Shown here: piece by piece, positions 5,792-29,802 of the stretch
How positions within the stretch are numbered: the first letter of the stretch is position 1
Layout of the letters: each line of letters begins with the position of its first letter
Source of the DNA: an uncultured Clostridia bacterium
Lineage (GTDB): Bacteria > Bacillota > Clostridia > Christensenellales > Borkfalkiaceae
Assembly: GCA_904373255.1 (NCBI GenBank)
Contig: CAJFFD010000003.1
Span: 1 to 49,864, forward strand
Reading direction: 5' to 3'
DNA length: 49,864 nucleotides
Notes under the pieces: generated by a model
What the model saw: only the letters and a program-made list of their open reading frames with translations
What the model was told of the DNA's origin: nothing
Databases searched by the model: none
Made by a program: the position numbers and the translations under genes

Positions 5792-5820
5792 TTGACTTTT
5801 TAAATTCAGTGTGCTACAAT
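5792..5820 (+). promoter_or_regulatory. Sigma-A-type promoter of the seven-gene operon
   Basis: TTGACT-N17-TACAAT followed by GAGGAGGGG and ATG at 5844. Confidence 0.75.
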
Positions 5821-5843
5821 TGAATCTGCGAGGAGGGGAATAT

Positions 5844-6548
5844 ATGGCAGGTTGGTATATCTTGCTGGTATTGACGGGCATCTTTTTTCTCGCCGTCCAG
5901 TTTGTTCTGTTGCCGAAGATCCTTGTCAGGCTGCGATACGGCGCGGTTCCGCCGCGCGGGCGCGGGAGGGAAACCTTGCGGGAGTCAGACGGCAAAAGCG
6001 TCCTTTACGACGCTCCTTCCGACGTTTCGCATGTCATTCCGCAATATACGCTCTCGGAGCGGAACGGAGAAAAGCGGCTGCAATGCCGTGTAAGCGCCAA
6101 TGTGCGCGCCATTTCGTACGATGTGGCGCTGTTCAATAGGTACGGCGAGGTGTTCAAAGTCCTCAACGTCCGCAAAGATGCCGTAAATTCCGGATATACG
6201 GGCGAAATCGCTCTGCCTCCGGAAACGGAATACATATCCATCTATCTCCCCGCGGCGAAAGGAGTTCGCCGCGGTATAAGCGCGCCTTCGGGAAAAATTC
6301 CGAAAGTGCGCTTTCTCATTTATATTACGGTGTTTGTTCTTTCGGTATTCCTTTCCGTATGCCTCATGCGCATCAGCGTCGCGCATATTTTCGGCGGGTT
6401 GTATGCCGAAGGGTTCCTCATGAGCGGCTATTTCGGCTCGGTTTTGAGCACGAGCCTGGTCGTCGTGGCGGCGGACATCCTGTTCGCTTTGATCCTTTTC
6501 AAAGTAAAAAACCGTAAGCGCCGGAGGGACAGGCATGCAAAACATTAA
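5844..6548 (+). CDS. Membrane protein with an internal cytosolic/beta-rich domain (operon gene A)
   Basis: ATG after strong Shine-Dalgarno; N-terminal TM (GWYILLVLTGIFFLAVQFVLL) and C-terminal TM pair; no recognised family. Confidence 0.75.
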   Translation: MAGWYILLVLTGIFFLAVQFVLLPKILVRLRYGAVPPRGRGRETLRESDGKSVLYDAPSDVSHVIPQYTLSERNGEKRLQCRVSANVRAISYDVALFNRYGEVFKVLNVRKDAVNSGYTGEIALPPETEYISIYLPAAKGVRRGISAPSGKIPKVRFLIYITVFVLSVFLSVCLMRISVAHIFGGLYAEGFLMSGYFGSVLSTSLVVVAADILFALILFKVKNRKRRRDRHAKH

Positions 6549-9500
6549 AGTTCTTTCCAAAGGCGAATATCTCCGCCCGCAGGATTTTTCTCCCGTTACG
6601 CTCATCCGCTATATCTTTGCGGAGGAAGGGGGCAGGCGGTATATTCTTCTCGAATTCCGCAACAACAGGGAGGAAGAGCTGAACGGGCTGTCCTTTGAGC
6701 TGACGCAGTACGGCGCAGACGGGAACGCCCTTTTCAGCCGCGCCGTTTCCGCGCCCGTGCGCGCGGGTGCGGGCGAAGTTTTCACCTGTACGAAGTTGGA
6801 GGCAGACCCCGCCTGCGCGGATTTTTCGGTGGAGAAGATGTCTGCCCGTTACGGCGGATATTCGTATACGATGCGCGGCGGCAAGCTCGCCGTCGGGTAC
6901 GGGGAACCCGTCCGCGCCGCGGCGGGGGAAGATGCGGCGGAGCCTGTCCCCACGGAGAGCGCCCCGAAATACACGGTCGCCGAGCAGCGGGCGAAGTATC
7001 CTGCGGCGATCGGGATTTTTGCGTGCATTACCTTTCTGTGCATCGTAGCTCTCGTTTTGGCGCAGCTGTTTTCGTATAAGGAAACGGCGACCGGAATTAT
7101 GAAGGACGGCGTCGTATATTCCTTCGACCACGGTATAGATACCGAAGGGGCGGACATATACGTCAGCGATTTCAAGGGAAAGGGAGACGTTACCATCCCT
7201 GCGGAGATCGAAGGGCATAAAGTCACCTACGTCAGTTCGCTCTCCTTTCAAGGCAACAATGACATAACCGGCATAGAGTTCAAGGGGAGCATCAGCATCG
7301 CTTCGAATGCGTTTGCGAATTGCCGGAACCTCCAGCACGCGAACCTGCAGAACGTTACGTCCGTCGGGGCATATGCGTTTGAAGGCTGCGACAGCCTGAA
7401 GGAGGTGCGCTCCTCCACGCTGAACTCGATCGATGCCAGAGCTTTTGCCGAATGTACCGCTTTGGAAACGGTGGAGATCAAGGGGGAAGAGCGGTCGCTT
7501 TCCCTCGGCGAGAATGCCTTCAGAGACTGTTATTCGCTCCGCTCTGTCAGGCTGGAGCCGACGATCATCTATGGAGGGCCCCAACCTTTTGATCAATGCG
7601 ATCAGCTCGAGGAACTGTATCTCCGCAATTACGAATATTCCGGCGGAGATCAACCTGCCGCGCCTTCCGAGGCGGCGCCGCTGTGGGAGCTGTTTTCGAA
7701 TTATCCGGATTTTTACACGTCGTCGTTGAACGAAGTGCATATCGGCTATATGGACTGTATACCCGATGATTTTTGCGAAGGGTTCGGAGGACTCGGGAGC
7801 GTCACCGTCGACAACCTCGTTTCGCCCGTCGTCGGGGAGAGTGCGTTTAAGGGTTGCAGCGGTTTATACGAGATCAACATTCCCGACGTTACGGAAGTGG
7901 GATTCCGCGCCTTTGCGGGGTCGGGGATTTCCTCCTTCGACGGCAAAAATATCGTCAGCCTCGGCGAGGAGGCGTTTGCCGAATCGAACGTCAGTTCGGT
8001 AACGTTCGAGGGGAATGCCGCGCTGACCGGAATCCCGGATGGCGCGTTCGAAGGCTGCGGAAATCTGCGTGAGATCGTTTTGCCCGAAAACCTGGAAACA
8101 ATCGGCACGGGCGCGTTCGGCAACTGTTTCCAAATCGAATATATCGATTTGCCATCCGGTCTGAAAGAGATCGGAGCAAGCGCGTTTTCAAACTGCAGTT
8201 CCCTCCGGCAAGTCATCGTTCCCGACGGGACGGAATTTATCGGAGAGGGGGTATTTGGGAACTGCACGGATATGTCCTCCCTCACGCTGCCTTACCTGGG
8301 GTATTCCGCAGACGAGCCGGCAACTTTGGCGAACCTGTTCGCGTGGAGCGAAAACAATCTGCGCGACGTTACGCTGACGCGCGCATCGGTACTTGCGGAC
8401 AGCGCGTTTTTCGGGTTCACCCGGCTGCGTTCGGTATCTCTGCCCGATACGCTGGAAAGCATCGGAAAAGATGCGTTCGCGGAATGCTCATCGCTCTCCG
8501 AACTCTACATACCCGATTCGGTGCGGAGCATCGGGAGCGGCGCACTTGCGGGCTGTTCTTCGCTCGAGAACCTGGACATTCCGTTTTTGGGCGAAAACGA
8601 AAGCATTGCCGGAACCGTTCCCGCCCTGTTCGGATGGGAAAATTACCGGGACTGCACCGGGGCATTCTGTTCGCTGAAGAGCGTGCGCGTGCGGAACGGG
8701 GAAGAAATTGCCGCCGGCGCATTTTACCGGTGCGGTCTGCTCGAGGAGGTCGATTACCGGCAGACGATCCGTTCGATCGGGGAAGATGCGTTCAGCGGAT
8801 GCGCGTCGATCACATCCTTTACGCTTCCTTCAGGGCTGGAAACGATCGGTTCGGGGGCGTTTGAGGGGTGTTACCGCCTCTATGAAGTGGAAAACAGAAG
8901 CTCGCTGAATGTCCGTGCGGGATCGGAAGGGTACGGCATGGTCGCGAAATACGCCCTCGCGGTATACGGCGCGGGGGAGAATATGCCCGCGCGGGAAACG
9001 GATGGAGACTGGACGTTCATGGAAACGGGCGGCGTGCGCTATCTCGTCGGATACGGCGACAGAAGTTTTCTTTCCCTGCCGCAGACGCCGCAGAGCTACC
9101 GCATCGCGCCCTACCTGTTTTACAATGACACAAATATCGAGCGGCTGGCTTCCACAGGTTCGGCGGAAATAATCGGAGACTATGCCTTTCTGCAATGCGC
9201 TTTTCTGACGGATGCGGCGTTATCCGAAGGAATAAAGGAGATCGGAGAGGGAGCGTTCAGCGGATGCAATATTCTTACGAAGGTAACGCTTCCGGCGTCC
9301 CTTGCGGAAATCGGCGAGGGAGCGTTTTCGAGCAACTGCCTGTATGAGGTCTGGAATTTGAGTTCTTTGCCCGTCGAAGCGGGCGGAAGCGATTACGGCG
9401 GCGTGGGAAAATATGCGATGTTCATATACGACTCTGCCGACGAAGAAAGCAGGGTCGCCGCCGAAGACGGGTTCATCTTTGTGCGCGACGGGGAGGAATG

Positions 9501-9774
9501 GAGCCTCGTCGCCGCGTCGCAGACCGACCGGGTGTATCTTCCCGAGGACGGAAGGATCGGCGGCGTGCGGATCGACGGGTATGCGCTGGGCAAAGGGTTC
9601 GGCAATGAAGGAATAAAGGTGCTGTACATCCCCATGGAAGTCGAGAGGGTCGGGCAGGCCGCATTCGACGGATGCACGGGGCTGACGGCGATCTATTACG
9701 AGGGTACGGAGGAGGAATGGCTGCAGATCGGCGGATATACGCCGTCCGGCTGTTCGATCGTCTATGAAAGCTGA
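6535..9774 (+). CDS. Membrane-anchored BspA-type leucine-rich repeat (LRR_5) protein (operon gene B)
   Basis: Many copies of IGxxAFxxCxxLxxVxLPxxLxxIG; TM YPAAIGIFACITFLCIVALVLAQLF near residue 160; overlaps gene A by 14 nt. Confidence 0.9.
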   Translation: MQNIKVLSKGEYLRPQDFSPVTLIRYIFAEEGGRRYILLEFRNNREEELNGLSFELTQYGADGNALFSRAVSAPVRAGAGEVFTCTKLEADPACADFSVEKMSARYGGYSYTMRGGKLAVGYGEPVRAAAGEDAAEPVPTESAPKYTVAEQRAKYPAAIGIFACITFLCIVALVLAQLFSYKETATGIMKDGVVYSFDHGIDTEGADIYVSDFKGKGDVTIPAEIEGHKVTYVSSLSFQGNNDITGIEFKGSISIASNAFANCRNLQHANLQNVTSVGAYAFEGCDSLKEVRSSTLNSIDARAFAECTALETVEIKGEERSLSLGENAFRDCYSLRSVRLEPTIIYGGPQPFDQCDQLEELYLRNYEYSGGDQPAAPSEAAPLWELFSNYPDFYTSSLNEVHIGYMDCIPDDFCEGFGGLGSVTVDNLVSPVVGESAFKGCSGLYEINIPDVTEVGFRAFAGSGISSFDGKNIVSLGEEAFAESNVSSVTFEGNAALTGIPDGAFEGCGNLREIVLPENLETIGTGAFGNCFQIEYIDLPSGLKEIGASAFSNCSSLRQVIVPDGTEFIGEGVFGNCTDMSSLTLPYLGYSADEPATLANLFAWSENNLRDVTLTRASVLADSAFFGFTRLRSVSLPDTLESIGKDAFAECSSLSELYIPDSVRSIGSGALAGCSSLENLDIPFLGENESIAGTVPALFGWENYRDCTGAFCSLKSVRVRNGEEIAAGAFYRCGLLEEVDYRQTIRSIGEDAFSGCASITSFTLPSGLETIGSGAFEGCYRLYEVENRSSLNVRAGSEGYGMVAKYALAVYGAGENMPARETDGDWTFMETGGVRYLVGYGDRSFLSLPQTPQSYRIAPYLFYNDTNIERLASTGSAEIIGDYAFLQCAFLTDAALSEGIKEIGEGAFSGCNILTKVTLPASLAEIGEGAFSSNCLYEVWNLSSLPVEAGGSDYGGVGKYAMFIYDSADEESRVAAEDGFIFVRDGEEWSLVAASQTDRVYLPEDGRIGGVRIDGYALGKGFGNEGIKVLYIPMEVERVGQAAFDGCTGLTAIYYEGTEEEWLQIGGYTPSGCSIVYES

Positions 9775-9801
9775 CCGCTGCCGCCGGGGAAAGGAGAGGA
9801 T

Positions 9802-12800
9802 ATGATGCTGAAACACGGAGAGATCATCGCTGCGCTGACAGCCGGGCAGAAACAGGAACTGGCGGCGTCATTGCGCGCGTTTTCGCCCGACCGGGTGCCG
9901 GAGGGGATTCGGCCCTTCCGCTGTGCAGACATTTCGCAGGCGGGAGGGGAAACATTCCCTTCGTTCCGCGCGCTGGCAAACAGCTGGAACGCGGCGCTCG
10001 TGGGGGAGGTATGCGGCGCGCTCGCGCGGCAATGCGCCGGGGGCGAGGCGGCGCTTCTCTTCGTTCCGCCCGTAACCGTGGGCACAATACCCTGCGGCGA
10101 TGCCGTTTCGGAAGACCCCTGCCTGATCGGGGCGTATGCCGCGGAGATCTCCTCGGCGGTGCGCGGGGCGGGGGCTTTGCCCTGTTTCCGGTTTCTGCCC
10201 GACGAAAAAAATGCGGCACTGCTCGACGGCGTGCCTGAGCCGCGCGCCGTGTACGATTATTTTCTTGCCGCCCTTGCATATCTCCCGCGGGAAGGATTGG
10301 CTGCGGTGCTTCCCGCTCCCGGAGAAAAAGAGAATCCGAATATGGCGGAGGCGCGGCGGGCGCTGCTCGGAGCCGTGCGCGAAGGCGGCGTTGCCCTGTG
10401 CGAAAATGCGGCGGGGCGGGAAGCGGCTGCGCTGGCGGAGGGGTGCGTACTTGCGGACGGAGATGCCGCCGGGGTGGAGGCATCCGGCAAAGACGTGACC
10501 GACGAAGCCGCCGACAGGGCGATCGGACTTTCGGAACTTGTGCATGCCGCGCGGGAAACCGCCGCGGAACCGGTCGATACGGCGGAAGACGCCGCGCGCC
10601 GGGCTGCGGAGGAGTGCATCGTCCTGCTCTCCAATACCGGCAGCATTCTGCCGCTGCGCGAGGGGAGTTCCGTAGCCGTGCTGGGGGCTGCGGGGGAAGA
10701 ATTTTGCGCCGCGCTCGAAGGCGCGGGGCTGCGCTGCACGGGGTTCGCCCCGGGATATGCGCCCGAGAGGGAACGAAGCGACGAACTGATCCCTCCCGCC
10801 TGCGAACTGGCGGCGAAGGCGGATGCCGCCGTCGTATTCCTTTCGGGTACGGGCGCCGCGGAGGAGCTTCCCGCCAACCGCCTCGCTCTGCTCGCCGAAG
10901 CGGCGCGCGCCAATCCGAACCTTATAGCGGTCATTCCGCCGCAAGATCCGTGCAGCGTATCCTTCCGCGTCGGCGTTGCGGCATTGCTCGTTGCGGGCAT
11001 AGAAAGCGCGGAATCCCGCGCAGCGCTTGCCGGTGTTCTGGCGGGCAGGGTTTCGCCGGGCGGCAGGCTCGCCGCATCGCGGTATGACGACGCGGCAGGA
11101 TATTTCGGCTCGCTTCTGAACGGGAAGGAAGAGGGCTCGTTCCGCATCGGAGAGTTTGTCGGCTATCGGCGCGACGAGGCGGAGCAGACGCCTGCGGCTT
11201 ACCCCTTCGGGCATGGACTGGGATATTCGGAGTTCGAGTATTCTCAACTGAAAATCTTGTATTCCGCTGCGGAGGTGACCGTCCGCAACGTCGGCGGGCG
11301 CGACGCGTACGAGGTCGTGCAGCTGTATGTCGGCAAGGCGGATTCCGCCCTTCCCCGCCCGAAAAAGGAATTGAAGGGGTTCAAAAAGATTTTTCTCCGC
11401 GCCGGCGAGTCGGCGACGGTGAGTTTTCCGCTCTCGCCCTCGGCGTTTGCCGTGCGCAGCGGCGGGAACAGCGTAACGGAGGGAGGGGTGTACGAAGTTT
11501 CGGTCGGCGCGTCTTCCGCGGATATACGGCTGAAAACGACAATGCTTGCGGCGGGCGAGATGCTCGAGCGCGGCGGCGACGACGCTTCCTTCTACCTTCG
11601 GAACCGTTCCAACGTGTTGGCAGGCAATTATACGCTCGGCAGGGTCGTGCAGGTTCCGCCGCGGGGGAAAAAGATGCTGTCCGCGGGGAAAACGCTCGTG
11701 CTGATCTCCGTTTTGAGCGCCCTGTTTATCGCGTTGCTGCATTTTGCCGGGGCGGTCAGCCTGTTCAATACCGATGTGTTCTTTTCTCTGATCCTCCTGT
11801 TTGTCTGCCCCGCCTTGCTGATCGTGGGGGCGGTTCTGTTCATTGTGGGAAAACGGAGGCGGAGAGCGGCAAAGGCGAGTGCGCCGATCGTTTCGGACGG
11901 GTGTCCTGCGGAAACCGTGCGTGCAGGCGGGGAAAAGAGCTATGAAGAACTGTTCGACGAGGCGTTCGGCAGGGAGCGGAAAACGGAGGAGCGCCCCGCC
12001 GCATCCGCGTCAAAACGGCTCGGAGCGGACGAATCCGCCGCGTATATCGACCCTTCCTATACCATTCGGGATGCAGAATCGGAGCTTGCCGCCTGCTGTG
12101 CCGCCCGCGGGATTTCCCTGGGGGAGAGCGGAACGCGCAGCCTGCTTGCGGCTTTCTGCGCTTCGCGGCTGATTTTTGCCGAGGTCTCTTCGGCGAAGTA
12201 TCTGCCCGCGCTCGCACAGGCGCTCGGAGATTTCTTCGGCAGCGGCGGGTATTACGACGACGTTTCGGCGTATACGCAGCCCGCCGACCTGTTCGGCGCG
12301 GTGCGGAAGGAGGAAGGCGCGCAAACGGAGGCGGCGCGCGCGGCGGAAAATGCCGCGGAAAAGAAGCATGCCGTCTGTGCGGCGGTGCTCGGCGGCGTTT
12401 TGCTCCCGCCCGAAACGCTGCTCGGCTGCGTTGCCGGCTCCTTCGCGGCGACGCCGGGCGCGGAAGGCGCGCTTCCGCCGAACGTATGGCTCGTGTGCGG
12501 CGCCGAGGCGGGTTCCATGCCCGCTGCCGGCGAAGCGCTGGCGGAGGCGGCGTGCAGCATCCGCCTGGATATTGCGGGTACGGCAGCCGCGGAAGGGCAT
12601 CCTGTGCGCGCGCTCAATTATTACCAGCTGCTGCGGCTTGCGCGAAAGTGTACGAAGGAATTTCTGCTCGACGAAGACGCGTGCTGGAAAAAGGCAGACC
12701 GCCTGGAAAAAGCGGCGGCAAAGGCATCGCCATCGACCTTCCGGTTCGGGAACAGGCTGTGGCTTAAAACGGAGAGGTATTCTTCCGTCCTCCTCGCGCT

Positions 12801-12960
12801 GGGCGCGGAGCAGGGGGAGGCGTTCGACGATGCGGTGGCGGCGTGCATTCTGCCCGTGCTGTATTCGGCGGGAAAGGAATGCCTGCCCGAAGCGGAAAAG
12901 GAGCTGGACGAGGCGTCATTCCCCGAATGCCGCAAACAGCTTGACGGGTACGGGGTGTAA
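9802..12960 (+). CDS. GH3-like (probably inactive) protein with Fn3-like domain, TM hairpin and C-terminal degenerate McrB-like AAA domain (operon gene C)
   Basis: GH3-like stretches SEDPCLIGAYAAE, PFGHGLGYSEFEYSQLKI, VRNVGGRDAYEVVQLYVG…PKKELKGFKKIFLRAGE; TM TLVLISVLSALFIALLHFAGA…FFSLILLFVCPALLIVGAVLF; C-terminal similarity to the neighbouring AAA protein. Confidence 0.8.
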   Translation: MMLKHGEIIAALTAGQKQELAASLRAFSPDRVPEGIRPFRCADISQAGGETFPSFRALANSWNAALVGEVCGALARQCAGGEAALLFVPPVTVGTIPCGDAVSEDPCLIGAYAAEISSAVRGAGALPCFRFLPDEKNAALLDGVPEPRAVYDYFLAALAYLPREGLAAVLPAPGEKENPNMAEARRALLGAVREGGVALCENAAGREAAALAEGCVLADGDAAGVEASGKDVTDEAADRAIGLSELVHAARETAAEPVDTAEDAARRAAEECIVLLSNTGSILPLREGSSVAVLGAAGEEFCAALEGAGLRCTGFAPGYAPERERSDELIPPACELAAKADAAVVFLSGTGAAEELPANRLALLAEAARANPNLIAVIPPQDPCSVSFRVGVAALLVAGIESAESRAALAGVLAGRVSPGGRLAASRYDDAAGYFGSLLNGKEEGSFRIGEFVGYRRDEAEQTPAAYPFGHGLGYSEFEYSQLKILYSAAEVTVRNVGGRDAYEVVQLYVGKADSALPRPKKELKGFKKIFLRAGESATVSFPLSPSAFAVRSGGNSVTEGGVYEVSVGASSADIRLKTTMLAAGEMLERGGDDASFYLRNRSNVLAGNYTLGRVVQVPPRGKKMLSAGKTLVLISVLSALFIALLHFAGAVSLFNTDVFFSLILLFVCPALLIVGAVLFIVGKRRRRAAKASAPIVSDGCPAETVRAGGEKSYEELFDEAFGRERKTEERPAASASKRLGADESAAYIDPSYTIRDAESELAACCAARGISLGESGTRSLLAAFCASRLIFAEVSSAKYLPALAQALGDFFGSGGYYDDVSAYTQPADLFGAVRKEEGAQTEAARAAENAAEKKHAVCAAVLGGVLLPPETLLGCVAGSFAATPGAEGALPPNVWLVCGAEAGSMPAAGEALAEAACSIRLDIAGTAAAEGHPVRALNYYQLLRLARKCTKEFLLDEDACWKKADRLEKAAAKASPSTFRFGNRLWLKTERYSSVLLALGAEQGEAFDDAVAACILPVLYSAGKECLPEAEKELDEASFPECRKQLDGYGV

Positions 12961-12991
12961 CGCGGCGCTGCCGTTCCGCGGGAGGTATTGC

Positions 12992-14740
12992 ATGAACACG
13001 GAAGATCTTTTGTATCGCGCGTTCCGCGATTACAGGGAGAATACGGAGCATGACCGCGACTGTGAAAGACGCCGCCGCGCCCTGACGCGCGCCGGCGGGA
13101 ACGACGCGCTCGAGGTCATCGAAACGGAATGCGAAATTGAAAACGACTGGCTTGAGGCTGCCGAGGAGGGGCTGGAATACATCGGCAGGGCGATCGGCGA
13201 AGAGCGGCAGTTCATCCGTTCCAACGGCGAGGTCGTGCCGATCGAAAAGGTCAAGAGCGTTTCGCGCGAATCGGCGGAGCATCTTTCGCGGCACGGAGAG
13301 TTCATTACGCGGCGGCAGGGCGAAGACATCGTTCCGGATAAACTCTACACGGTGGAGCGGCTCAACGATTACACCGTATACGAGAACAGATTTTTGTATA
13401 TGCTCCTGTGCTATCTGCGCGATTTTATCTCCTACCGCTACGGAAAAATCACGGAGTATGTGAATACATACCGCGGGCGGCTGCGCGTGGAAAAAACGGC
13501 GGATACGGGCGCGCGGCGCACCTCCGTGACCCTGGTGGCGGAAGACGTGCGGAAAAACGACGAGCGCATACTCGAAAAGAGCGGCGTAAAAAGCCAGCTT
13601 TCCCGCATGGACGGCGCACTCAAAACGGTGCATCTGCTGCTCGGCACGCCGCTCATGCAGGAGGTGGCAAAGGTTCCGATGCTCAAGCCTCCGGTCACGG
13701 AAACGAACGTCCTGAAAATGGATAAAAATTTCAAGGGCGCTCTGCGGCTGTATTATTTCCTCGTTTCGTATCAAAAGGACGGGTTTACCGTCAGGCAGAC
13801 CACGCGCCGTTTCAGTCCGCTCCCCGATGGCGCCGCCGATGAATTTTCGGAGGCGGAGGAGCTTGTGACCTTCCTTATGTATGAGTACGGGATGCAGATC
13901 GGGGAGGAACTGCGCCGCGCATATCTGGAAGAACAGGAACGGCGGAAGCGGGAGGAGGCGCGCCGGGAAGAGGAGCGTTTCCGCGGCTTGCGCAAACGCG
14001 TGAGGGAATCGGGCGTCGGGGCGGAGGAATATATGCTCCTTCTGGAAAGCCGCTGCCGCAGCCTCGAAAAGGAAAAGGCATCGCTCGCCGAAGCATATTC
14101 CCGCAGCGAGGGCATGCTGGCGGAGTCGGTCAAGCGCGGCGGAGAACTGGAACTTGCGCTGCGCGAAAGCCGCGAAGCGCTGGAAAGCGCAGAGGCTGCG
14201 CACCGCGGCGAACTGGAAAGCGCAGAGGCTGCGCACCGCGGCGAACTGGAAAGGCTCGCCGGCGAACGCCGAGCCGAGGTTTCCGCGCTGGAAGAGCGGT
14301 ACAGGGGTGAACTCTCCGCGCTCCGCCTCGAGCATGAAAGAGAACGCGCGGCGGGCGAAAAAGCGTTCGCGGCGGAGCGGGCGAAGCTGGAAGAAGCGCG
14401 CGCGGATGCCGAAGAGCGGTTCGCCTGCTCCGAAGAGATGCGGGAACGTGCGGAAGCCGCCGCCGCGCGTGCTGACGGGGAGCGGATTCTGGCGGAGGCG
14501 AGGCTGAACGCCGTTAAAAGCGAGTACGGCGCGTTCGGCGAGGAGGAAGATTTCACCTCGATGGAACGATTCGACGAGATCGAGCGCCAGTACCGCGCTT
14601 TCCGCGCATTCTTTAAAAAAGAGTGGCGGAAAGCAAAAAGGAGGATACGAAAGGAGGCGTTCGCCGATGTTTTCGCCGCCGAAGATAAGGGCGGCGGGCA
14701 GGATTCGGGCAAAGAGGACGGAAAACCGGGCAAATCATGA
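12992..14740 (+). CDS. DUF2357-like protein with long C-terminal coiled coil (operon gene D)
   Basis: ATG at 12992 after GGGAGG; DKLYTVERLNDYTVYENRFLYMLLCYLRDF and PPVTETNVLKMDKNFKGALRLYYFLVSYQ resemble DUF2357 motifs; Ala/Glu/Arg-rich coiled coil follows. The ORF-track start at 12176 is an artefact. Confidence 0.7.
   Translation: MNTEDLLYRAFRDYRENTEHDRDCERRRRALTRAGGNDALEVIETECEIENDWLEAAEEGLEYIGRAIGEERQFIRSNGEVVPIEKVKSVSRESAEHLSRHGEFITRRQGEDIVPDKLYTVERLNDYTVYENRFLYMLLCYLRDFISYRYGKITEYVNTYRGRLRVEKTADTGARRTSVTLVAEDVRKNDERILEKSGVKSQLSRMDGALKTVHLLLGTPLMQEVAKVPMLKPPVTETNVLKMDKNFKGALRLYYFLVSYQKDGFTVRQTTRRFSPLPDGAADEFSEAEELVTFLMYEYGMQIGEELRRAYLEEQERRKREEARREEERFRGLRKRVRESGVGAEEYMLLLESRCRSLEKEKASLAEAYSRSEGMLAESVKRGGELELALRESREALESAEAAHRGELESAEAAHRGELERLAGERRAEVSALEERYRGELSALRLEHERERAAGEKAFAAERAKLEEARADAEERFACSEEMRERAEAAAARADGERILAEARLNAVKSEYGAFGEEEDFTSMERFDEIERQYRAFRAFFKKEWRKAKRRIRKEAFADVFAAEDKGGGQDSGKEDGKPGKS
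14183..14248 (+). repeat. 33-nt tandem duplication (2 copies) encoding ESAEAAHRGEL
   Basis: GAAAGCGCAGAGGCTGCGCACCGCGGCGAACTG twice in tandem. Confidence 0.95.
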
Positions 14741-16137: not shown

Positions 16138-16155
16138 CGGCGGCGGGGAAAGGAG

Positions 16156-19107
16156 GTGACGGTTACGGTCGGCAGAAAAAAATGGATTCTCATACTCGGC
16201 GCGGCGGCTGTGGGCGTCACCGTGCTTCTTGCGGTACTGTTGGGGCTTACGGCGGGCGGATTCGGCGCGGGGCTGCCGCAGCTTACCTTTTCTTCGGCGG
16301 CGGAAGAGTTTCTGTACGACGGGCAGGCGCACGGCGGGAGCCGATGGGAGCTGACCGGCGGCAGCCTGCCGCAGGGGTATACGGCAGCCGCGGATTTCCC
16401 GCAGGGCAAAACGCAGGCGGGGACTTATGAAAATACTTTTTCCGTGCGCATTTCCGACGAGGAAGGAACGGACGTATCCGATTCTTTTCGCATTTCCTAT
16501 GAGTTCGGAACGCTGAAAATCCTGCCGCGCGGCATTGTCCTTTCCACTGCCGACGCGAGCAAGGAATACGACGGAACGCCCCTGACGAACGGCGCGTATG
16601 AAGTCGATTCGGCAATGCTGCTGGAGGGGCATTCCATGCAGATCGAGGTGACCGGCAGCCGGACGGAGGTGGGGGATTCGCCCAACACGGCTTCCGTCAC
16701 GGTCACGGATGCAAGCGGGCAGGACGTTTCCGCAAATTACGCCGTTTCCGTGAACGAAGGGACGCTCTCCGTCCTGCCTGTCGCCGTTACGGTCGTCACG
16801 TCTTCGGATACGAAGGTGTACGACGGCGAGCCGCTGTCCTGTTCCGAATACAGCGTTACGGGTCTGCGGGACGGGGATACGTTTTATGCCGACCTTCCCG
16901 CGCGGCAGACGGACGTGGGAAAGTGCGAAAACATCGTCGGCGATTACCGCGTGGAGGATTCTTCCGGGAACGACGTGACGGGATTTTACGGGTTCGAATT
17001 TCTCTGCGGGGAACTGACGGTTACGCCGCGCACCGTTACCGTCCGCTCGGGGGATGCGTCCAAGCAGTACGACGGAACTCCCCTCGTCTGCGGGGATTGG
17101 GAAATCGTGTCCGTCACGCAGCCCGTCGGAGGTCACGAACTTCTCGTCAGCGTCTCCGGCACGATCACGGAAGTGGGGGAAGTGCCGAACACGATCGCGC
17201 AGGTGGTTGCCCTCGACGCGCATGGAAAGGATATTACATATAATTACGAGATCAAAGCGCAGGAAGGAAGATTGGTCGTCAAAGGCGAAGGCGGCTCGGA
17301 CGATCCGGGCGGGATCGCCGGTTCGGGCGGCGGCGGGCTTGCCGCAGACGGGTCGCTCGGCGGCGGTATGCTGGAAGGCGGCAGCGGCGAAGACGTTCTC
17401 GCTCTGCGTGTTTTTTCGGATACCGGCGGGCAGGTCTATCTTCGGCTGAAAAGTTTCGGCGATTACGCATTCCGCAGCTGGGAAGAAGCGGAGCCCTATG
17501 CCGGCAGGATTGACGGGAAGTATTCCCTGAACTACATGGCGGGCATCGCCCTGCGCGAGGCGGGCGTACAGCGGTCGTATATGCGCCTGGAAGTCGCTTC
17601 CGACGATTACCTGCTGCCGTATTATCTCGATCCGAGCGAACTGGATTACCGCGTACAGGGCAGCGACGTCCTTTACGAAGGGGATACGGGCAGCATCTAT
17701 TCGATGTATTACTATTCGCACGACTACCTTGCTTCGGGAATATCCGCCGTCAGTCTGGGCGAGTACGCCGAAGCGGAAAAGGCGTATGCGGCGTATGTGC
17801 GCGAGCATTATCTCGCGGTTCCCGATTCCACGCGGCAGTATATGGATAAAATCATTGCCGAGCAAAGATTCGACAGGAACGACCCCGGTATCCTCGCTTC
17901 CGTGGCGGAATACATACAGGGCGCGGCGGAATACGATTTGCAGTACGATACCGCCCTCGACGGAGAAGAGGATGTTGCCGTGGCATTCCTGCGCGATTAT
18001 AAGAGGGGGATCTGCCGCCATTACGCGAGCGCGGCGACTCTCCTGCTTCGCTCTCTCGGCATCCCCGCGCGCTATACCATCGGGTATGCGGGGCAAACCG
18101 CCGCGGGCGAGTGGACGGATATTTCGGCGGAAAACGCCCACGCCTGGGCGGAGGCTTATGTCGACGGGGTCGGCTGGGTCTATGTGGAAGTCACGGGCGG
18201 CGGCGCTGCCGCGGGGACGGGGATCCCCGGCGGCGGTTCTGGCGGCTCGGGCGGAAAACCGGGCGATTCGGGTGAAAATCCGGGCGATCCGGGCGGCGGC
18301 TCGGGCGGTTCGGGCAGCGGCATTACGATGAAGCTGGAAGTCAAACCCGTGGACGAATATATGAAATACGACGGGGTGACCACGCTCACGCATTCCGGCG
18401 CGCTGCAGGGATTGAGCGCCCTTACGGAGAAGGGATATACATACGAAGCGGAGGTTTCCGGCTCCCGGCGCGACGTGGGCATCAGCGTCTGCCGCATTGT
18501 CCGCCTTCGCCTGTTCGACCGCGAAGGAAACAACGTTACCGGGCGGTTCGACATTCGTTACTCTCCCGGGAAACTGCAGGTATACCTGCAGGAGATCACA
18601 GTCGTTACCGCGAGCGCCGGCAAGGTATATGACGGCACGCCGCTCACGGCGGACGGGTGTTCTCTGAAAGGGAACCTGCTGGCGGGGCATACGCTCGGTG
18701 TTTTTTCCGCAACGGGCAGCATCACTTCCGCCGGCAGAAGCATCAATACTTTCAATATCTCCGTTCTGGATGCGGAAGGGCGGAACGTTACATATATGTA
18801 CAAAGTCAACGCGGAATACGGCATCCTCGAAGTTTCCCCGCGCGAAATCACGATTGCTGCGGGGAGCGCGGAAAAGGCGTACGACGGCTCGGCTCTCGTC
18901 TGCGGGGATTATACGGTCTCTTCCGTGTACGACCGGGCGCTGCCGGAGGGGCATACGCTCGTGGTTGCGCTGTTCGGTTCGCAGACGGAGATCGGGCAGA
19001 GCGAAAACAGCGTTACGGCGTATACGGTCACCGATGCGGACGGAAACGACGTGACCGATAATTATTCCGTGCGGATCGTCAGCGGCACGCTGCGAGTAAC
19101 GCCCTGA
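16156..19107 (+). CDS. MBG-domain repeat protein with transglutaminase-like domain (operon gene F); start approximate
   Basis: xKxYDGTPLxxxxY…DVSANYxVxxxxGTLxV repeats flanking a transglutaminase core GICRHYASAATLLLRSLGIPARYTIGYAG…NAHAWAEAYVDGVGWVYVEVTG. Confidence 0.9.
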   Translation: MTVTVGRKKWILILGAAAVGVTVLLAVLLGLTAGGFGAGLPQLTFSSAAEEFLYDGQAHGGSRWELTGGSLPQGYTAAADFPQGKTQAGTYENTFSVRISDEEGTDVSDSFRISYEFGTLKILPRGIVLSTADASKEYDGTPLTNGAYEVDSAMLLEGHSMQIEVTGSRTEVGDSPNTASVTVTDASGQDVSANYAVSVNEGTLSVLPVAVTVVTSSDTKVYDGEPLSCSEYSVTGLRDGDTFYADLPARQTDVGKCENIVGDYRVEDSSGNDVTGFYGFEFLCGELTVTPRTVTVRSGDASKQYDGTPLVCGDWEIVSVTQPVGGHELLVSVSGTITEVGEVPNTIAQVVALDAHGKDITYNYEIKAQEGRLVVKGEGGSDDPGGIAGSGGGGLAADGSLGGGMLEGGSGEDVLALRVFSDTGGQVYLRLKSFGDYAFRSWEEAEPYAGRIDGKYSLNYMAGIALREAGVQRSYMRLEVASDDYLLPYYLDPSELDYRVQGSDVLYEGDTGSIYSMYYYSHDYLASGISAVSLGEYAEAEKAYAAYVREHYLAVPDSTRQYMDKIIAEQRFDRNDPGILASVAEYIQGAAEYDLQYDTALDGEEDVAVAFLRDYKRGICRHYASAATLLLRSLGIPARYTIGYAGQTAAGEWTDISAENAHAWAEAYVDGVGWVYVEVTGGGAAAGTGIPGGGSGGSGGKPGDSGENPGDPGGGSGGSGSGITMKLEVKPVDEYMKYDGVTTLTHSGALQGLSALTEKGYTYEAEVSGSRRDVGISVCRIVRLRLFDREGNNVTGRFDIRYSPGKLQVYLQEITVVTASAGKVYDGTPLTADGCSLKGNLLAGHTLGVFSATGSITSAGRSINTFNISVLDAEGRNVTYMYKVNAEYGILEVSPREITIAAGSAEKAYDGSALVCGDYTVSSVYDRALPEGHTLVVALFGSQTEIGQSENSVTAYTVTDADGNDVTDNYSVRIVSGTLRVTP

Positions 19108-19215
19108 CGGGCATGGAACGGTTTGAAAAAGCAAATGTGTATTGTAAAATTTGCGGCAATCCGAAGCGCGACGCGGCTATATCGGCGCTGAAATCCGAAA
19201 AAGGAGGAAGGGCGG

Positions 19216-22200
19216 ATGCGGTACGAAAATTATCGGAATAAAATGCAGAAACTCGCCGGGTTTGCGGGCGTCGTGCGGCGTTTCCGCGTGCCAATCATTC
19301 TTGCGCTCGCGCTCGTTGCCGCCGTGTGCGCCGCTCTCCTCTCCGTGCGGGGCATCGTATACGAGGTGGCGCCCTGCCCCTCTTCGGTGGAGTACGGAAG
19401 CCCGCTCGGCTACGAGGCGGCCGCCGTGCTTGCGGATGTGCGGTACGAATATGCGCCCGGGTCGGGCGGGGAATGGACTTGCGAGGTTCCCGTGCGCGTG
19501 GGCGAGTACCGCGTTCGCGCGGTTGCGGAAAACGCTTTCGGCGGCAGGCGCTGCGGCAGTACGCGTACATTTTCCATCGTACCCAGGGAAACGGACGTAT
19601 ACGTTTCGCAGGAGAAGGCGGAATACGGTTCGCTTCCCGCGGTGACAGCCGACCTCGCCTACGGGGATACCGTTTTCTGCACCCGCTTTGAATATGCGGA
19701 TATTGCCGCGGCGGAAACGGAGGTGACAGCCGTCGAATCGGCGGTCGTCGCCCTGGACAGGGAGGGGAACGACGTTTCATTCTGTTACATTTTCCGCCCC
19801 GTCGCGGTGCCGGTCGGTTTTACGCCGCGCGAAATCAGCGTGCGCGTGCAGGACGCGGAGAGCGTTTACGACGGCACGCCCCTGCGCTTCGACGGATATG
19901 AACTGGATCCGTCCACGCCGCTTGCGGAAGGCGATATTCTCATCGCGCAGTTCGACGACGAGCGGACAGAGGCGGGGGAAGGGGAGAATATTCCCGAAAT
20001 ACGGGTCAAAAACACCGCCACCGGCAAAGACGTAACGGCGCGGTACAAAATCGGGATTGTCCCCGGCAAGCTGACGGTGCAGAAGCGACCGCTGTATGTG
20101 ACGACCGGCAGTGCGTCGAAAATTTACGACGGCACCGCCCTTGCCGACGGCAGGTATTCGCTCGCCGCGGCGGACGGGGAGTCGGGGCTGCTGGAAGGGC
20201 ACAGGGAAGTTCTGCTTTCCGGCACGCAGTTGACGGATGCGGGCAGTGCGGATAATATCCTGCAATTCCGCATCGAAAACGGAGACGGGGCGGATGTCAG
20301 CGCCAACTATTCGCTGTTTTTCGACGCAGGGACGCTATCGGTCGGAAAGCGGCAGGTGTTCTATTCCACGGGCAGCGGCGCATGGGAATACGACGGTACC
20401 GCGCATTCCTGCACGGAGTATTCCGTTGCGGATGGCGGCGAAAACACGGGCATCCTTCCGGGGCATACGCACGCGCTGGGAACGCCCGCGGAAATCACCG
20501 ATGCGGGAGAAGCGGAAAACGCGTCTGCGCTTTGCATAACGGATGCAGAAGGCAGAGACGTTACTTCCAATTACGAAACGGTCTGCCGCGCGGGAACGCT
20601 CTCCGTCGTTCCCCGCCCGGTCACGCTGCGCTCGGAGAACGGCGAATGGGTCTACGACGGCGAAGCGCATTCGCAGCCGCTGCTTTCGGTTGCGGAGGGC
20701 AGCCGTCCGCTCGTTGCGGGGCATTCGTTCCGCATCGGGCAGTGTACGGAAATAACGGATGCGGGCAGCGTACAGAATTTGCTCGGCGTGTTTATTTCAG
20801 CCGCAGACGGAAAGGATGTTACCGCCAATTACGATATAACCTGCGAATACGGCGTTCTCACCGTTCTTCCTCGCCCGGTCACGGTGCGGGCGGCGGACGC
20901 CGAAAAGGTGTACGACGGCACTGCGCTGCGGTCGGATGAGTTTGTCGTAACGTCAGAATACAACCCCGCGCTCGTCGCGGGGCATACCTGCACGGCGAAG
21001 ACGGAGGGCATCCGTACCGATGCGGGGGAAGAGGCGAACCGGGTCGTTTCCTTCTCCGTGCGCGATGCGGAAGGAAAGGACGTTACCGCCAATTACGGCG
21101 TAACGTTTGCGGAGGGCGTTCTCACCGTTCTTCCCCGCCCGGTCACGGTGCGGGCGGCGGACGCCGAAAAGGTGTACGACGGCACGGCGCTGCGGTCGGA
21201 TGGGTTTATTGTAACGTCAGAATACGACCCCGCGCTCGTCGCCGGGCATACCTGTGCGGCGGATACGGAGGGCGACCGCACGGACGCCGGAACGGCGGAA
21301 AACAGGATTTCCCGGGTCATCATATATGATGCGGACGGGCGTGATGTAACGGCAAACTATGCCGTAACGGAGGAAACGGGCGTCCTTAAAGTGCTTCCCC
21401 GCCCCGTCGTATTCCGGACGGCGGACAATGCGTGGATGTACGACGGCACGGAACACAGCGAATCGGGATTCGTCCTTGCGCCTTCGAGCGGATACAAGCT
21501 CGTTGCGGGGCATAAAGCCGTGGCGGAAAAGTATGCGGTCGTCGACGCGGGGGAATACGAAAACAGGCTGACGGTGAGGATCGTATCGCAGGATGAGGAA
21601 GAGGTCACGTTCAACTACGATATATCGTATGAATACGGCACGCTTTCCGTTCATCCGCGCCCGATCACGGTAACGGCTGCCGATGCGGAAAAAATGTACG
21701 ACGGGCTTCCGCTCGAATCGACGGATGTTATAATCACTTCCGATTGCGACCCCGCCCTGGTCGAAGGGCATTACTACGATTTCTACAATGCGGGTACGCG
21801 GACGGATGCGGGGCAGAGCGTTTGCACGGTGGAGTATTTCTGCGTGTACGAAGGGGATTTCGCCGGGGGCGTCAGGGATGTGACCGATAATTACAAAATC
21901 ACGTTCGGAGACGGAACGCTTTCGGTCACCCGCCGCCCGATCACCGTTAAGGCAGCCGATCAGGGGAAGGTGTATGACGGGCTTCCCCTGGAGTCGGATG
22001 CAGCCGTTTGGGTGGATTCGGATCTGATTTCCTGGCATTCCTACGATGTGGAAACGCAGGGCAGCATCACCGACGCCGGTACCGCGCCGTGCAGCGTGCG
22101 TTCGGTCACCGTTTGGGAATACGGGCGCGACGTAACGTTCAACTACGAGATAACCTGCCTCGGCGGCACTCTTATCGTTACGCCTCTGCCGATCGGGCTG

Positions 22201-24720
22201 CAGGCGGGAAGCGCGTCGAAAAAATTCGACGGCACCCCGCTCACCTGCGAAACCTTCCTTTGGATTCCGCTGTACGAAGACCGGCTTCCCGTGGAGGGGC
22301 AAACGGCGCGCGTTTTGACGCAAGGGGAACAGACGGAAATCGGGGAAAGCTCCAATAAGGTGGTTTCCTATGCGCTGTACGAGGGCATGCGCGACGTTAC
22401 CGGAAATTATGCCGTTACCTGCTTCGACGGGTGTCTGCGCGTGCTGATCCCCGATTATACGATGAAGATCAGTACGGGCAGCGGGAGCAAAGTTTACGAC
22501 GGCACGCCGCTCACCGTCCCCGAATGCGAAATAACCGAAAGCGATCTGCCGGATACCTTTTCGGTAACGGCGGAAGCAAAGGGGTCAGCCTGGGCGGCGG
22601 GGAAAGTGCGCAATACCGTGCGCCTGGAGATCATTGCGCCCGACGGCACCGATGTTTCCGATTTTATATACGTCGAATACGATTACGGGATTCTGGAAAT
22701 TCTGCCGCGCCCGATCATCGTGCAGACAGCGAGCAATTCCTGGGAATACGACGGGGAAACGCATTGGGATACGGGCGCTGAAACGACTGCGGCGAGCCTG
22801 CCTCTGGCGGAAGGAGATTCGTTTCAATGTACCGGGCCGGTCTTCATCAGCCGCGTCGGCATCGAGGAAAACAGCCTGGAGATGGAAATTGTGCGGCAGG
22901 TTTCCGAAGGCGTGAGCGTTACCGTGACCGACTGTTACATTATCACCTGGATTTACGGCGTTCTGGAGATCACCCCTTCCGACCTGTATGGCGATATAGG
23001 GATCGGTCTTCCCGACATAGCTCCCGGGGGCGGCGATGGAGGAGGAGACGGCAGCGGCAGCGGCGGTTCTTTCGGAAAAGTCTATTCGGAAAGCGGCGGA
23101 ATGGTTTATCTGCGCGAAGCCAATTACGGGGAATATATGGGCGCATATTGGCGCAGCACGATTCCGTATAAGCAGCTGCTCGACGATACTTATTCGATGA
23201 ATTACCTGGCTTCCTTCGCCCTGCAGAACGGCGGAAAGCAAGGCAGTCTTATCCGCATTCAGATGGAAACGGGCAAGTATGTGCTTCCGTATTATATGGT
23301 GCCCGGCGCGGGGAATTATCAGGTACAGACGAGCGACGTGCTGTATTCGGGAAATACTTCCGAACCGTACGAACTGTACAATTATTTTTACGATTATGCA
23401 GCGGAAGGGGGATTCGGCGAACTGCCCGCGCAGTATGCGGCTGCAGAGGCGGCATACCGCAATTTCGTGCGGAACGAATATCTCGCCGTACCCGAAACGA
23501 CGCAATCGTATCTGAAGTATGTCATCCGTCGGCAGCGATTCGATGCGTCCGATCCGTCCGTCATTTCCAAGGTGGCGAATTATGTGCAGGGCGCGGCGCA
23601 GTATAACTGGAAGTACGACAGGCTTCTGGACGTGCAGTCGGATATAGTCGTCGCGTTTCTGCGCGATTTCAAGGAAGGGATTTGCCAGCACTATGCGAGC
23701 GCGGCAACGCTCCTTTTCCGTATGCTCGGTTTCCCCGCCCGCTATACGGTCGGCTACGCGGTCAAGGCGGAGGCGGGCGAATGGACGGATATTTCCGAAT
23801 TGGACGCACATGCGTGGGTCGAAGTATATATCGACGGATTCGGTTGGGTATATGTGGAGGTTACGGGCGCCGGTCACGCTTTCGGCGATCCGGTCGGGGG
23901 CAATGAGCCGCTTCGCCTGGAAATCAAACCGGCCGACGAGGTCAAACAGTACGACGGCACGCCCCTTACCGCCCGATACGTCGAGGGCGCCGATCCCCGT
24001 TCCGCACTTCTGCTGCGCGAACTTCTGCTTGTGGGATATTCGTATAAAGCCGTATTCGGCGGAAGCATTACGCCGGTCGGGTGGAGCATGAGTTCCATCG
24101 AATCGTTCACGCTGTTCGATGCAGGGGGGACGGATGTTACCGACCGGTACGATTTTGAGTTTACGAGAGGGGAGCTGGCTGTCGTGGAAGAAACGGTCAT
24201 AACGGTGCGCCCGTATGCACTGCAAAAACAGTACGACGGCGAGCCGTTCCTGTACGGCGCATACGACTATACCGCCGCGGGAGTACCCGGCGGGCATGCG
24301 CTGCATCTGAGCCTGGAGGGGATCGGGCTGACGGATGCGGGCGTTTTGCGGCAGGAGGATCTGCAGGGCGTTGCCGTTTCCGTGACCGATGAATACGGCC
24401 GCGATGTTACCGATCGGTTCTATATCCATTTCGATCTGGAAAACGCCCTCATGGTCAGCCGCAGGGCGATAACGGTGGCCAGTATTTCCGAAACCAAGGC
24501 GTACGACGGCACGCCTCTCACGAACAGAACGTTCTGGATTGCAGGCGGCTCTCTTGCGCCGGGCGACGTGCTTTTTGCCGAAGTGATCGGCTCGCAGACG
24601 GAAATCGGTTCCTCGGAAAATTCGATTTCGTCGGTGCGCATAACCGATGCGGCGGGGGCGGAAGTAACGGATAATTACAGGGTCAGCCTTTCGGAAGGCA
24701 TGCTGACGGTTCTCGGATGA
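19216..24720 (+). CDS. Large MBG-domain repeat protein with transglutaminase-like domain (operon gene G)
   Basis: About 12 YDG-type repeats before and 3 after a transglutaminase core GICQHYASAATLLFRMLGFPARYTVGYAV…DAHAWVEVYIDGFGWVYVEVTG; N-terminal TM. Confidence 0.9.
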   Translation: MRYENYRNKMQKLAGFAGVVRRFRVPIILALALVAAVCAALLSVRGIVYEVAPCPSSVEYGSPLGYEAAAVLADVRYEYAPGSGGEWTCEVPVRVGEYRVRAVAENAFGGRRCGSTRTFSIVPRETDVYVSQEKAEYGSLPAVTADLAYGDTVFCTRFEYADIAAAETEVTAVESAVVALDREGNDVSFCYIFRPVAVPVGFTPREISVRVQDAESVYDGTPLRFDGYELDPSTPLAEGDILIAQFDDERTEAGEGENIPEIRVKNTATGKDVTARYKIGIVPGKLTVQKRPLYVTTGSASKIYDGTALADGRYSLAAADGESGLLEGHREVLLSGTQLTDAGSADNILQFRIENGDGADVSANYSLFFDAGTLSVGKRQVFYSTGSGAWEYDGTAHSCTEYSVADGGENTGILPGHTHALGTPAEITDAGEAENASALCITDAEGRDVTSNYETVCRAGTLSVVPRPVTLRSENGEWVYDGEAHSQPLLSVAEGSRPLVAGHSFRIGQCTEITDAGSVQNLLGVFISAADGKDVTANYDITCEYGVLTVLPRPVTVRAADAEKVYDGTALRSDEFVVTSEYNPALVAGHTCTAKTEGIRTDAGEEANRVVSFSVRDAEGKDVTANYGVTFAEGVLTVLPRPVTVRAADAEKVYDGTALRSDGFIVTSEYDPALVAGHTCAADTEGDRTDAGTAENRISRVIIYDADGRDVTANYAVTEETGVLKVLPRPVVFRTADNAWMYDGTEHSESGFVLAPSSGYKLVAGHKAVAEKYAVVDAGEYENRLTVRIVSQDEEEVTFNYDISYEYGTLSVHPRPITVTAADAEKMYDGLPLESTDVIITSDCDPALVEGHYYDFYNAGTRTDAGQSVCTVEYFCVYEGDFAGGVRDVTDNYKITFGDGTLSVTRRPITVKAADQGKVYDGLPLESDAAVWVDSDLISWHSYDVETQGSITDAGTAPCSVRSVTVWEYGRDVTFNYEITCLGGTLIVTPLPIGLQAGSASKKFDGTPLTCETFLWIPLYEDRLPVEGQTARVLTQGEQTEIGESSNKVVSYALYEGMRDVTGNYAVTCFDGCLRVLIPDYTMKISTGSGSKVYDGTPLTVPECEITESDLPDTFSVTAEAKGSAWAAGKVRNTVRLEIIAPDGTDVSDFIYVEYDYGILEILPRPIIVQTASNSWEYDGETHWDTGAETTAASLPLAEGDSFQCTGPVFISRVGIEENSLEMEIVRQVSEGVSVTVTDCYIITWIYGVLEITPSDLYGDIGIGLPDIAPGGGDGGGDGSGSGGSFGKVYSESGGMVYLREANYGEYMGAYWRSTIPYKQLLDDTYSMNYLASFALQNGGKQGSLIRIQMETGKYVLPYYMVPGAGNYQVQTSDVLYSGNTSEPYELYNYFYDYAAEGGFGELPAQYAAAEAAYRNFVRNEYLAVPETTQSYLKYVIRRQRFDASDPSVISKVANYVQGAAQYNWKYDRLLDVQSDIVVAFLRDFKEGICQHYASAATLLFRMLGFPARYTVGYAVKAEAGEWTDISELDAHAWVEVYIDGFGWVYVEVTGAGHAFGDPVGGNEPLRLEIKPADEVKQYDGTPLTARYVEGADPRSALLLRELLLVGYSYKAVFGGSITPVGWSMSSIESFTLFDAGGTDVTDRYDFEFTRGELAVVEETVITVRPYALQKQYDGEPFLYGAYDYTAAGVPGGHALHLSLEGIGLTDAGVLRQEDLQGVAVSVTDEYGRDVTDRFYIHFDLENALMVSRRAITVASISETKAYDGTPLTNRTFWIAGGSLAPGDVLFAEVIGSQTEIGSSENSISSVRITDAAGAEVTDNYRVSLSEGMLTVLG
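20851..21270 (+). repeat. Near-identical tandem MBG repeat units, 264-nt period
   Basis: GGCGTTCTCACCGTTCTTCC(T/C)CGCCCGGTCACGGTGCGGGCGGCGGACGCCGAAAAGGTGTACGACGGCAC starts at 20851 and 21115. Confidence 0.9.
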
Positions 24721-24775
24721 CGGAATGAATGCGCAGCCGCGGCGAAAAAGAAACATAAGCGCAACGCTTCGGAGC

Positions 24776-24805
24776 AGAGCAGGGCAGTTTTTGCCCTGCT
24801 CTTTT
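24776..24805 (+). terminator. Rho-independent terminator closing the operon
   Basis: AGAGCAGGGCA-gtttt-TGCCCTGCTCT then TTT. Confidence 0.8.
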
Positions 24806-24884: not shown

Positions 24885-24913
24885 TTGACAAGGTTATATC
24901 TGTGTGATATAAT
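24885..24913 (+). promoter_or_regulatory. Perfect-consensus sigma-A promoter upstream of lacI-type regulator
   Basis: TTGACA-N17-TATAAT. Confidence 0.9.
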
Positions 24914-24921
24914 AAACGCGT

Positions 24922-24957
24922 AAATACCTAGGTACACGAAAATAAATACCTAGGTAC
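24922..24957. promoter_or_regulatory. Double palindromic operator
   Basis: AAATACCTAGGTAC at 24922-24935 and 24944-24957; each contains palindrome TACCTAGGTA, spaced 22 bp centre to centre, just downstream of the -10. Confidence 0.8.
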
Positions 24958-25023
24958 TTGACGACAGAGCGGAGAAAAGATATTGAAACAGAGGTTTTGT
25001 TTTCGATACGGGGAGAAAATCAT

Positions 25024-26028: not shown

Positions 26029-26067
26029 ACGGAAACGCAGCGGTTGTTTCAACACGGTACAATCGTT

Positions 26068-26094
26068 CAAAACCGGATCCGGTTTTGTTTTTTT
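26068..26094 (+). terminator. Rho-independent terminator after lacI
   Basis: CAAAACCGGATCCGGTTTTG followed by TTTTTTT. Confidence 0.85.
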
Positions 26095-26153
26095 GATTTT
26101 CAAAAAAACAAAATCCATTTAACAGAGAACAATATATTGATTGCGGAGGTAAT

Positions 26154-27359: not shown

Positions 27360-27440
27360 ACTTCCGGGCGGCTGCTGCGCGTTGTATTCTGTAAATATGT
27401 TAAAAACGCTTTCTGCGTTCAATTTTTGGAGGTAAAATCA

Positions 27441-28802: not shown

Positions 28803-28820
28803 TGCCGGTACGGAGGTTTT

Positions 28821-29801: not shown

Positions 29802-29802
29802 A

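What the first reader, a model, noticed from the sequence alone, without database searches (positions are those of the whole stretch)
5792..24805. Candidate undescribed membrane system: LRR + GH3-like/pseudo-AAA + DUF2357 + McrB-like AAA + two MBG-transglutaminases in one operon
Seen: one near-consensus promoter (TTGACT-N17-TACAAT), seven co-directional genes with mostly short gaps or overlaps, and a terminator at 24776. Known: McrB-like AAA with DUF2357 proteins is a pairing associated with McrBC-type restriction systems; MoxR-type AAA genes often neighbour transglutaminase genes. Inference: here the McrB/DUF2357 module has been recruited to the envelope, with a membrane-anchored motor, a cytosolic pseudoenzyme scaffold, and exported MBG/transglutaminase and LRR proteins as effectors or adhesins. 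I do not recognise this gene combination as a named system.
Basis: partly seen in the sequence, partly recalled or inferred. Interest (0 to 1): 0.9.

Follow-up and report, generated by a model that had tools for sequence, protein, structure and literature searches.

The report
McrBC-like motor in a surface-protein operon
Some uncultured gut Clostridia carry a conserved, undescribed set of genes in which a molecular motor of the kind that normally cuts foreign DNA has lost its cutting part, sits in the cell membrane, and always accompanies long stalk-like surface proteins, so it probably builds or controls a structure on the cell surface.

Summary
Among 68 loci with close relatives of the AAA gene, the order A-B-C-E1-D-E2-F-G recurs wherever it can be checked: D in 38/42 loci, two AAA genes in 36/42, C in 46/51 (one without GH3), A in 38/42, MBG-array proteins in 49/49. 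TGase (32/49) and LRR are optional. The window lineage has lost one of two AAA genes; in one clade the two carry nearly identical AAA domains behind different membrane anchors, which points to gene conversion. C is a dead GH3 joined through membrane helices to a pseudo-AAA paralogue of E. D is a DUF2357 protein with a coiled coil in place of a nuclease. E has the NxD motif of the McrB branch that contains CoCoNuT and CoCoPALM; its sister group is a CoCoPALM-like set flanked by SipW peptidases. Best reading: a membrane-anchored, nuclease-less McrBC-type NTPase that assembles, anchors or gates MBG-array surface proteins. The architecture is shown; the function is inferred. No description was found in the literature searched.

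The parts
5792..5820 (+). promoter-like TTGACT-N17-TACAAT upstream of gene A
5844..6548 (+). gene A, 234 aa: TM helix, cytosolic 8-strand beta-sandwich, then further TM helices; no Pfam family; homologues in 38 of 42 evaluable loci
   Evidence: AlphaFold pLDDT 87; no PDB fold match at E<=0.001
6535..9774 (+). gene B, 1079 aa: N-terminal domain inferred cytosolic, one TM (153-183), BspA-type LRR ectodomain; about 190-aa versions without LRR occur elsewhere
9802..12960 (+). gene C, 1052 aa: pseudo-GH3 + Fn3-like (1-580), two TM (625-686), pseudo-AAA paralogous to E (745-1052)
12992..14740 (+). gene D, 582 aa: DUF2357 (McrC N-domain type), no nuclease domain found, long coiled coil (344-511)
14737..16137 (+). 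gene E, 466 aa: two TM + McrB-like AAA+ domain with intact Walker A (GMSGTGKTS), Walker B (LDEMN), NxD sensor (ANNDD)
16156..19107 (+). gene F, 983 aa: N-terminal TM anchor, MBG-type repeats, transglutaminase domain (Cys and His conserved)
19216..24720 (+). gene G, 1834 aa: conserved N-terminal tail MxYxxYxxK (inferred cytosolic), TM anchor, long MBG/YDG array, transglutaminase domain
24776..24805 (+). intrinsic-terminator-like hairpin (11-bp stem, TTTT)

Best explanation
The operon encodes a membrane-anchored, nuclease-less McrBC-type machine that handles long surface proteins. Shown from sequence: E is a two-TM AAA protein with intact NTPase motifs of the NxD McrB branch; D is its usual neighbour, a DUF2357 protein with a coiled coil in place of a nuclease; C brings a dead AAA paralogue of E and a dead GH3; F and G are single-TM proteins with large MBG arrays, often carrying a transglutaminase. 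Inferred: D docks into the AAA ring as McrC does into McrB; C joins or caps the ring as an inactive subunit; A and B (beta domain plus TM, B sometimes with an LRR ectodomain) link the ring to the envelope; G is recognised through its conserved tail; and NTP hydrolysis drives assembly, clustering, anchoring or release of the MBG stalks, which the transglutaminase, where present, cross-links to each other or to the wall.
For: Conserved order over 68 loci, with MBG proteins directly downstream of the motor in 47/49 evaluable loci and further downstream in the other two. Walker A/B and NxD residues invariant in 33 aligned E proteins; NxD followed by D or E in E and its relatives. The sister group of the motor lies among SipW signal peptidases with D adjacent: 20/20 have D, 20/20 at least one SipW and 19/20 two, 16/20 TasA-like proteins, while none of the 68 system loci has SipW and none of the 20 has GH3, A, TGase or MBG. 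So two related motor types sit with two different sets of exported beta-rich proteins. C pseudo-AAA matches E at E = 3e-34. E1 and E2 share about 1.1 kb at 98.5-99.9% identity over the AAA part in 11 loci, with different N-terminal anchors, which suggests both must fit one partner. G keeps a tail with Y-x-x-Y in 48 of 50 sequences found through the ectodomain. Residues 72-124 of D, conserved in sequence, are unstructured in the lone model, as expected of an interface.
Against: No experiment. The AlphaFold model of D has no significant match to McrC or anything else in the PDB, so its fold is not confirmed; its DUF2357 assignment rests on sequence (weak in the window, above cut-off in outgroups). 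Patchy distribution, an adjacent serine recombinase and a link to a defence-candidate family (PDC-M26A) would also suit a defence system. All loci were found by similarity to E, so co-occurrence is conditional on E. Gene conversion can arise without functional need. GTP rather than ATP use is untested.
Confidence: 0.55

Rival explanations
1. Envelope-sensing defence system: MBG/LRR proteins sense phage or another attack at the surface and signal inward to the McrB/DUF2357 ring, which acts through an unrecognised effector.
For: McrB and DUF2357 relatives are mostly restriction or conflict systems (PMC11090510); E matches PADLOC candidate PDC-M26A at 1e-48; patchy occurrence within a genus (6 of 40) with members of one genus in distant parts of the E tree; serine recombinase next to the operon; closest relative lacks the segment.
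Against: No nuclease, toxin or other effector domain found in the proteins scanned; the sister group is tied to SipW and TasA-like export loci; the surface proteins are large anchored arrays, the most constant companions of the motor.
Confidence: 0.2
2. Signal transduction or adhesion control: pseudo-GH3 and LRR are sugar or peptide sensors that switch the motor, which regulates adhesion through the MBG proteins rather than building them.
For: C keeps the GH3 fold without catalytic residues, as expected of a binding domain; LRR ectodomain optional; the Bifidobacterium PFNA cluster (AAA, DUF58, TGase, FN3, kinase) is proposed as a sensing cluster (PMC8430577).
Against: No kinase, receiver or transcription factor in the operon; GH3 is absent in one locus (L082) and all of C in a few others where the motor and MBG proteins remain.
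Confidence: 0.15
3. Chance or loose co-location: unrelated accessory genes gathered on a mobile island.
For: The window operon lies in a variable segment beside a recombinase.
Against: Same gene order and strand in tens of loci in different genomic surroundings; overlapping or near-overlapping genes; paralogy between C and E.
Confidence: 0.03

Closest known systems
[quoted passage not shown] named in PMC11090510, 2024, left for a later paper)
   Same: NxD McrB-type AAA domain with N-terminal TM helices, adjacent DUF2357 protein usually with coiled coil and no nuclease, association with cell-surface export; the SipW-flanked loci found here fit the short published description and are the sister group in the tree
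   Different: No SipW in 68 loci; two AAA genes instead of one; extra pseudo-AAA/pseudo-GH3 protein; A and B membrane proteins; MBG arrays with TGase instead of TasA-like proteins. That my outgroup loci are CoCoPALMs is my identification from the description, not from a shared accession.
CoCoNuT and classical McrBC (type IV restriction)
   Same: McrB-type AAA and DUF2357 partner; NxD motif shared with CoCoNuT
   Different: No nuclease or nucleic-acid-binding domain found; membrane-anchored; surface proteins in the operon
PFNA cluster of Bifidobacterium and MoxR-DUF58-transglutaminase operons (PMC8430577)
   Same: AAA ATPase, membrane transglutaminase and a multi-repeat beta-rich surface protein in one operon
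   Different: AAA with DUF58, FN3 protein and kinase; no McrB-NxD, DUF2357, pseudo-AAA or MBG arrays described

Membership tests
McrBC / type IV restriction | McrB-type AAA domain with Walker A, Walker B and Nx(x)D motif | tested here: met
   invariant in 33 sequences; McrB structure 6hz4 matched at 2.5e-4
McrBC / type IV restriction | McrC partner with DUF2357 | tested here: met
   D below Pfam cut-off in window but homologous to outgroup proteins above it; fold search did not confirm
McrBC / type IV restriction | PD-(D/E)xK or other nuclease | tested here: not met
   no Pfam, NCBIfam or PADLOC nuclease found; coiled coil at that place in the model
CoCoPALM | NxD motif McrB-like domain | tested here: met
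   GTANNDDST
CoCoPALM | fusion of the GTPase to an FtsB-like TM plus coiled-coil segment | tested here: inconclusive
   two TM helices present; coiled coil or FtsB similarity not sought specifically
CoCoPALM | linked signal peptidase (SipW-type) | tested here: not met
   0 of 68 loci and window
CoCoNuT | long coiled coil fused to McrB and linked HEPN or other nuclease | tested here: not met
   E is 466 aa with TM and AAA only; no nuclease found in operon
GH3 glycoside hydrolase (catalytically active) | KH motif, Asp nucleophile, Glu acid/base | tested here: not met
   columns not conserved in 30 sequences, acid/base segment missing
Transglutaminase-like | Cys-His-Asp triad | tested here: inconclusive
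   Cys and His conserved in almost all; third position mostly Glu; activity not testable here

The most novel reading that the evidence does not exclude
A restriction-type McrBC motor has been turned into an envelope machine: a hetero-oligomeric NTPase ring of two active AAA subunits kept identical by gene conversion plus one inactive AAA subunit tied to a dead glycosidase, which builds or extrudes MBG stalk fibres recognised by a cytoplasmic tail. With the SipW/TasA branch it would define a family of McrBC-derived surface-assembly machines.
Probability: 0.4. Interest if true: 0.88.

Novelty: new variant of a known kind. Interest (0 to 1): 0.7.

Why it matters
McrBC-type NTPases are known as restriction motors. 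Two sister sets of loci, one with SipW and TasA-like proteins and one with MBG/transglutaminase proteins, tie nuclease-less, membrane-anchored members to surface proteins. If right, it makes a testable case that a DNA-defence motor was reused for cell-surface biogenesis, and gives a function to look for in the scarcely described CoCoPALM group. One locus comes from a record named Anaerocaecibacter muris strain CLA-AA-M11 (L063), which appears to be an isolate, so tests may be possible outside MAG-only organisms.

Tried and rejected
Viral contigs with D as query gave no relative; plasmid and phage records hold only distant AAA relatives (about 43% identity or less over part of the protein), and the two plasmid hits opened sit beside DUF2357 genes with no surface genes. 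Profile search of D against PDB sequences returned only coiled-coil matches, and its fold search only noise. Fold search of A: beta-sandwich, no significant match. A and B beta domains as homologues: weak (probability 21%), not claimed. C-E-F loci without D (L052, L062, L074, L106) were considered as real variants; because E1 and E2 are near-identical direct repeats, assembly collapse is as likely, so no weight is put on them. The serine recombinase as part of the system: rejected, found in no other locus. First G-tail alignment was biased by the pattern used to pick sequences, so it was repeated through the ectodomain.

Full report
Setting. The window is a contig of a 1.9-Mb MAG, estimated 73% complete. 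The nearest named relative of the operon is in a Candidatus Borkfalkia MAG (L042, 76% identity of E); NCBI places that genus in Clostridia, Christensenellales. Nearly all loci listed carry names of Clostridia or other Firmicutes from gut samples; one (L082) is named Anaeroplasmataceae and one is Anaerocaecibacter muris (L063).

Observation. Promoter, gene order, overlaps, domains and terminator are as described. A starts at 5844 and D at 12992. E is the only match in the window's own genome at E <= 1e-20.

Conservation. In genome contigs 68 loci were kept. Gene calls and profile searches give the order A-B-C-E1-D-E2-F-G. Counting only loci with enough flanking DNA: D 38/42; two E genes 36/42; C with GH3 and pseudo-AAA 44/51 by the automatic rule, plus one pseudo-AAA-only case (L082) and the Borkfalkia locus L042, which the rule missed because D lies between C and E; A 38/42; MBG repeats within 6 kb 47/49, the other two (L068, L069) having them further on; TGase 32/49. 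The 17 without TGase are mostly in one clade, where F and G are MBG-only, some with PWxxLP-type stalks. B lacks the LRR in many loci. The four loci without D have one E between C and the surface genes, which an assembly collapse of near-identical E1 and E2 would also produce. The window and L042 have C-D-E, so there E1 is absent in two separate assemblies.

Distribution. Tblastn with E found matches at E <= 1e-20 in 112 of 396 genomes of the order, but by my reading of the list only about two dozen are of the system type (about 50% identity or more, usually two copies); the rest are single 500-550-aa proteins or more distant. In 398 genomes drawn from the phylum only 41% identity or less over part of the protein was seen, apart from the window itself. 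Within the genus D occurs in 6 of 40 genomes, and carriers fall in distant parts of the E tree. The nearest relative, G013, loses homology with the window at base 1686. This suggests transfer or frequent loss.

The motor. E carries Walker A, Walker B and the NxD motif, invariant in 33 sequences. The relatives in the tree read GTxNxD followed by D or E, the hallmark that PMC11090510 gives for the branch containing CoCoNuT and CoCoPALM. The system clade is sister to a group of single E genes (support 0.97 for the union). Twenty loci of that group were fetched: all have D next to E, all have a SipW-type signal peptidase within 8 kb and 19 have two, and 16 have proteins with a TasA-like N-terminal pattern, a loose regular-expression test. 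NCBIfam supports the peptidases in the loci scanned as signal peptidase I / SipW-like. None of the 68 system loci has SipW; none of the 20 has GH3, A, TGase or MBG profiles.

D. Pfam gives DUF2357 at 4e-4, below cut-off; D is related to outgroup proteins most of which exceed the cut-off. No nuclease model matches. The model (pLDDT 78) shows a helical/beta N-domain, a conserved but unstructured segment at 72-124, and a 168-residue helix. The PDB fold search was negative.

C. Residues 1-580 match beta-glucosidases (E = 1e-136 with the family profile) but the KH motif, nucleophile and acid/base positions are not kept. Residues 745-1052 match the AAA domain of E at 3e-34 without Walker A, Walker B or sensor residues. 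Two TM helices lie between, so both ends should be on one side of the membrane; cytosolic is inferred from the lack of an N-terminal hydrophobic segment.

Concerted evolution. In 11 loci E1 and E2 share about 1.1 kb at 98.5-99.9% DNA identity, starting near the end of the differing N-terminal anchors; two more loci show 92-94%, and in the other clade the pair is 70-84% identical. The A. muris locus (98.5%) is from a high-coverage record. Gene conversion is the simplest reading. That both AAA domains must fit the same partners is my inference.

Surface proteins. F and G have one N-terminal TM. TGase Cys and His are conserved, with Glu usual at the third position. G has a short N-terminal tail, Y-x-x-Y in 48 of 50 sequences by my count, selected without using the tail.

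Function. See Best explanation and rivals. Shown: conservation, domain make-up, loss of catalytic residues, sister relation to SipW loci. Inferred: ring composition, docking, fibre assembly, cross-linking.

Novelty. Searches of the open-access library found no description of the cluster. Subscription papers and the announced CoCoPALM paper are not held, so a description may exist.

Noticed in passing
window 3873-5480 (-): Large serine recombinase (Resolvase, Recombinase, zinc ribbon) directly upstream of the operon, in no other fetched locus; homology to the nearest relative ends at window 1686.
   Followed up: partly
window 24885-30669: Perfect sigma-70 promoter at 24885 and two TACCTAGGTAC palindromes before a LacI-type regulator and a sugar ABC transporter operon.
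   Followed up: no
L057, L062, L064, L066, L067, L074: A gene of about 500 aa precedes A; in the three scanned (L062, L064, L074) it matches CvpA (PF02674) weakly, below cut-off.
   Followed up: partly
L038 8917-13426, L039 3632-7774: McrB-like proteins of 886-991 aa with many TM helices paired with DUF2357 proteins carrying CxxC zinc-ribbon-like motifs: another membrane form.
   Followed up: no
L082 4733-11080: C is a 469-aa TM plus pseudo-AAA protein without GH3, and E1/E2 are 99.7% identical over the AAA part behind different anchors.
   Followed up: yes
L099 14020, L105 14172, L108 14695: F proteins with PWxxLPxDxPW-type stalk repeats and CxxC motifs between TM anchor and MBG domains.
   Followed up: no
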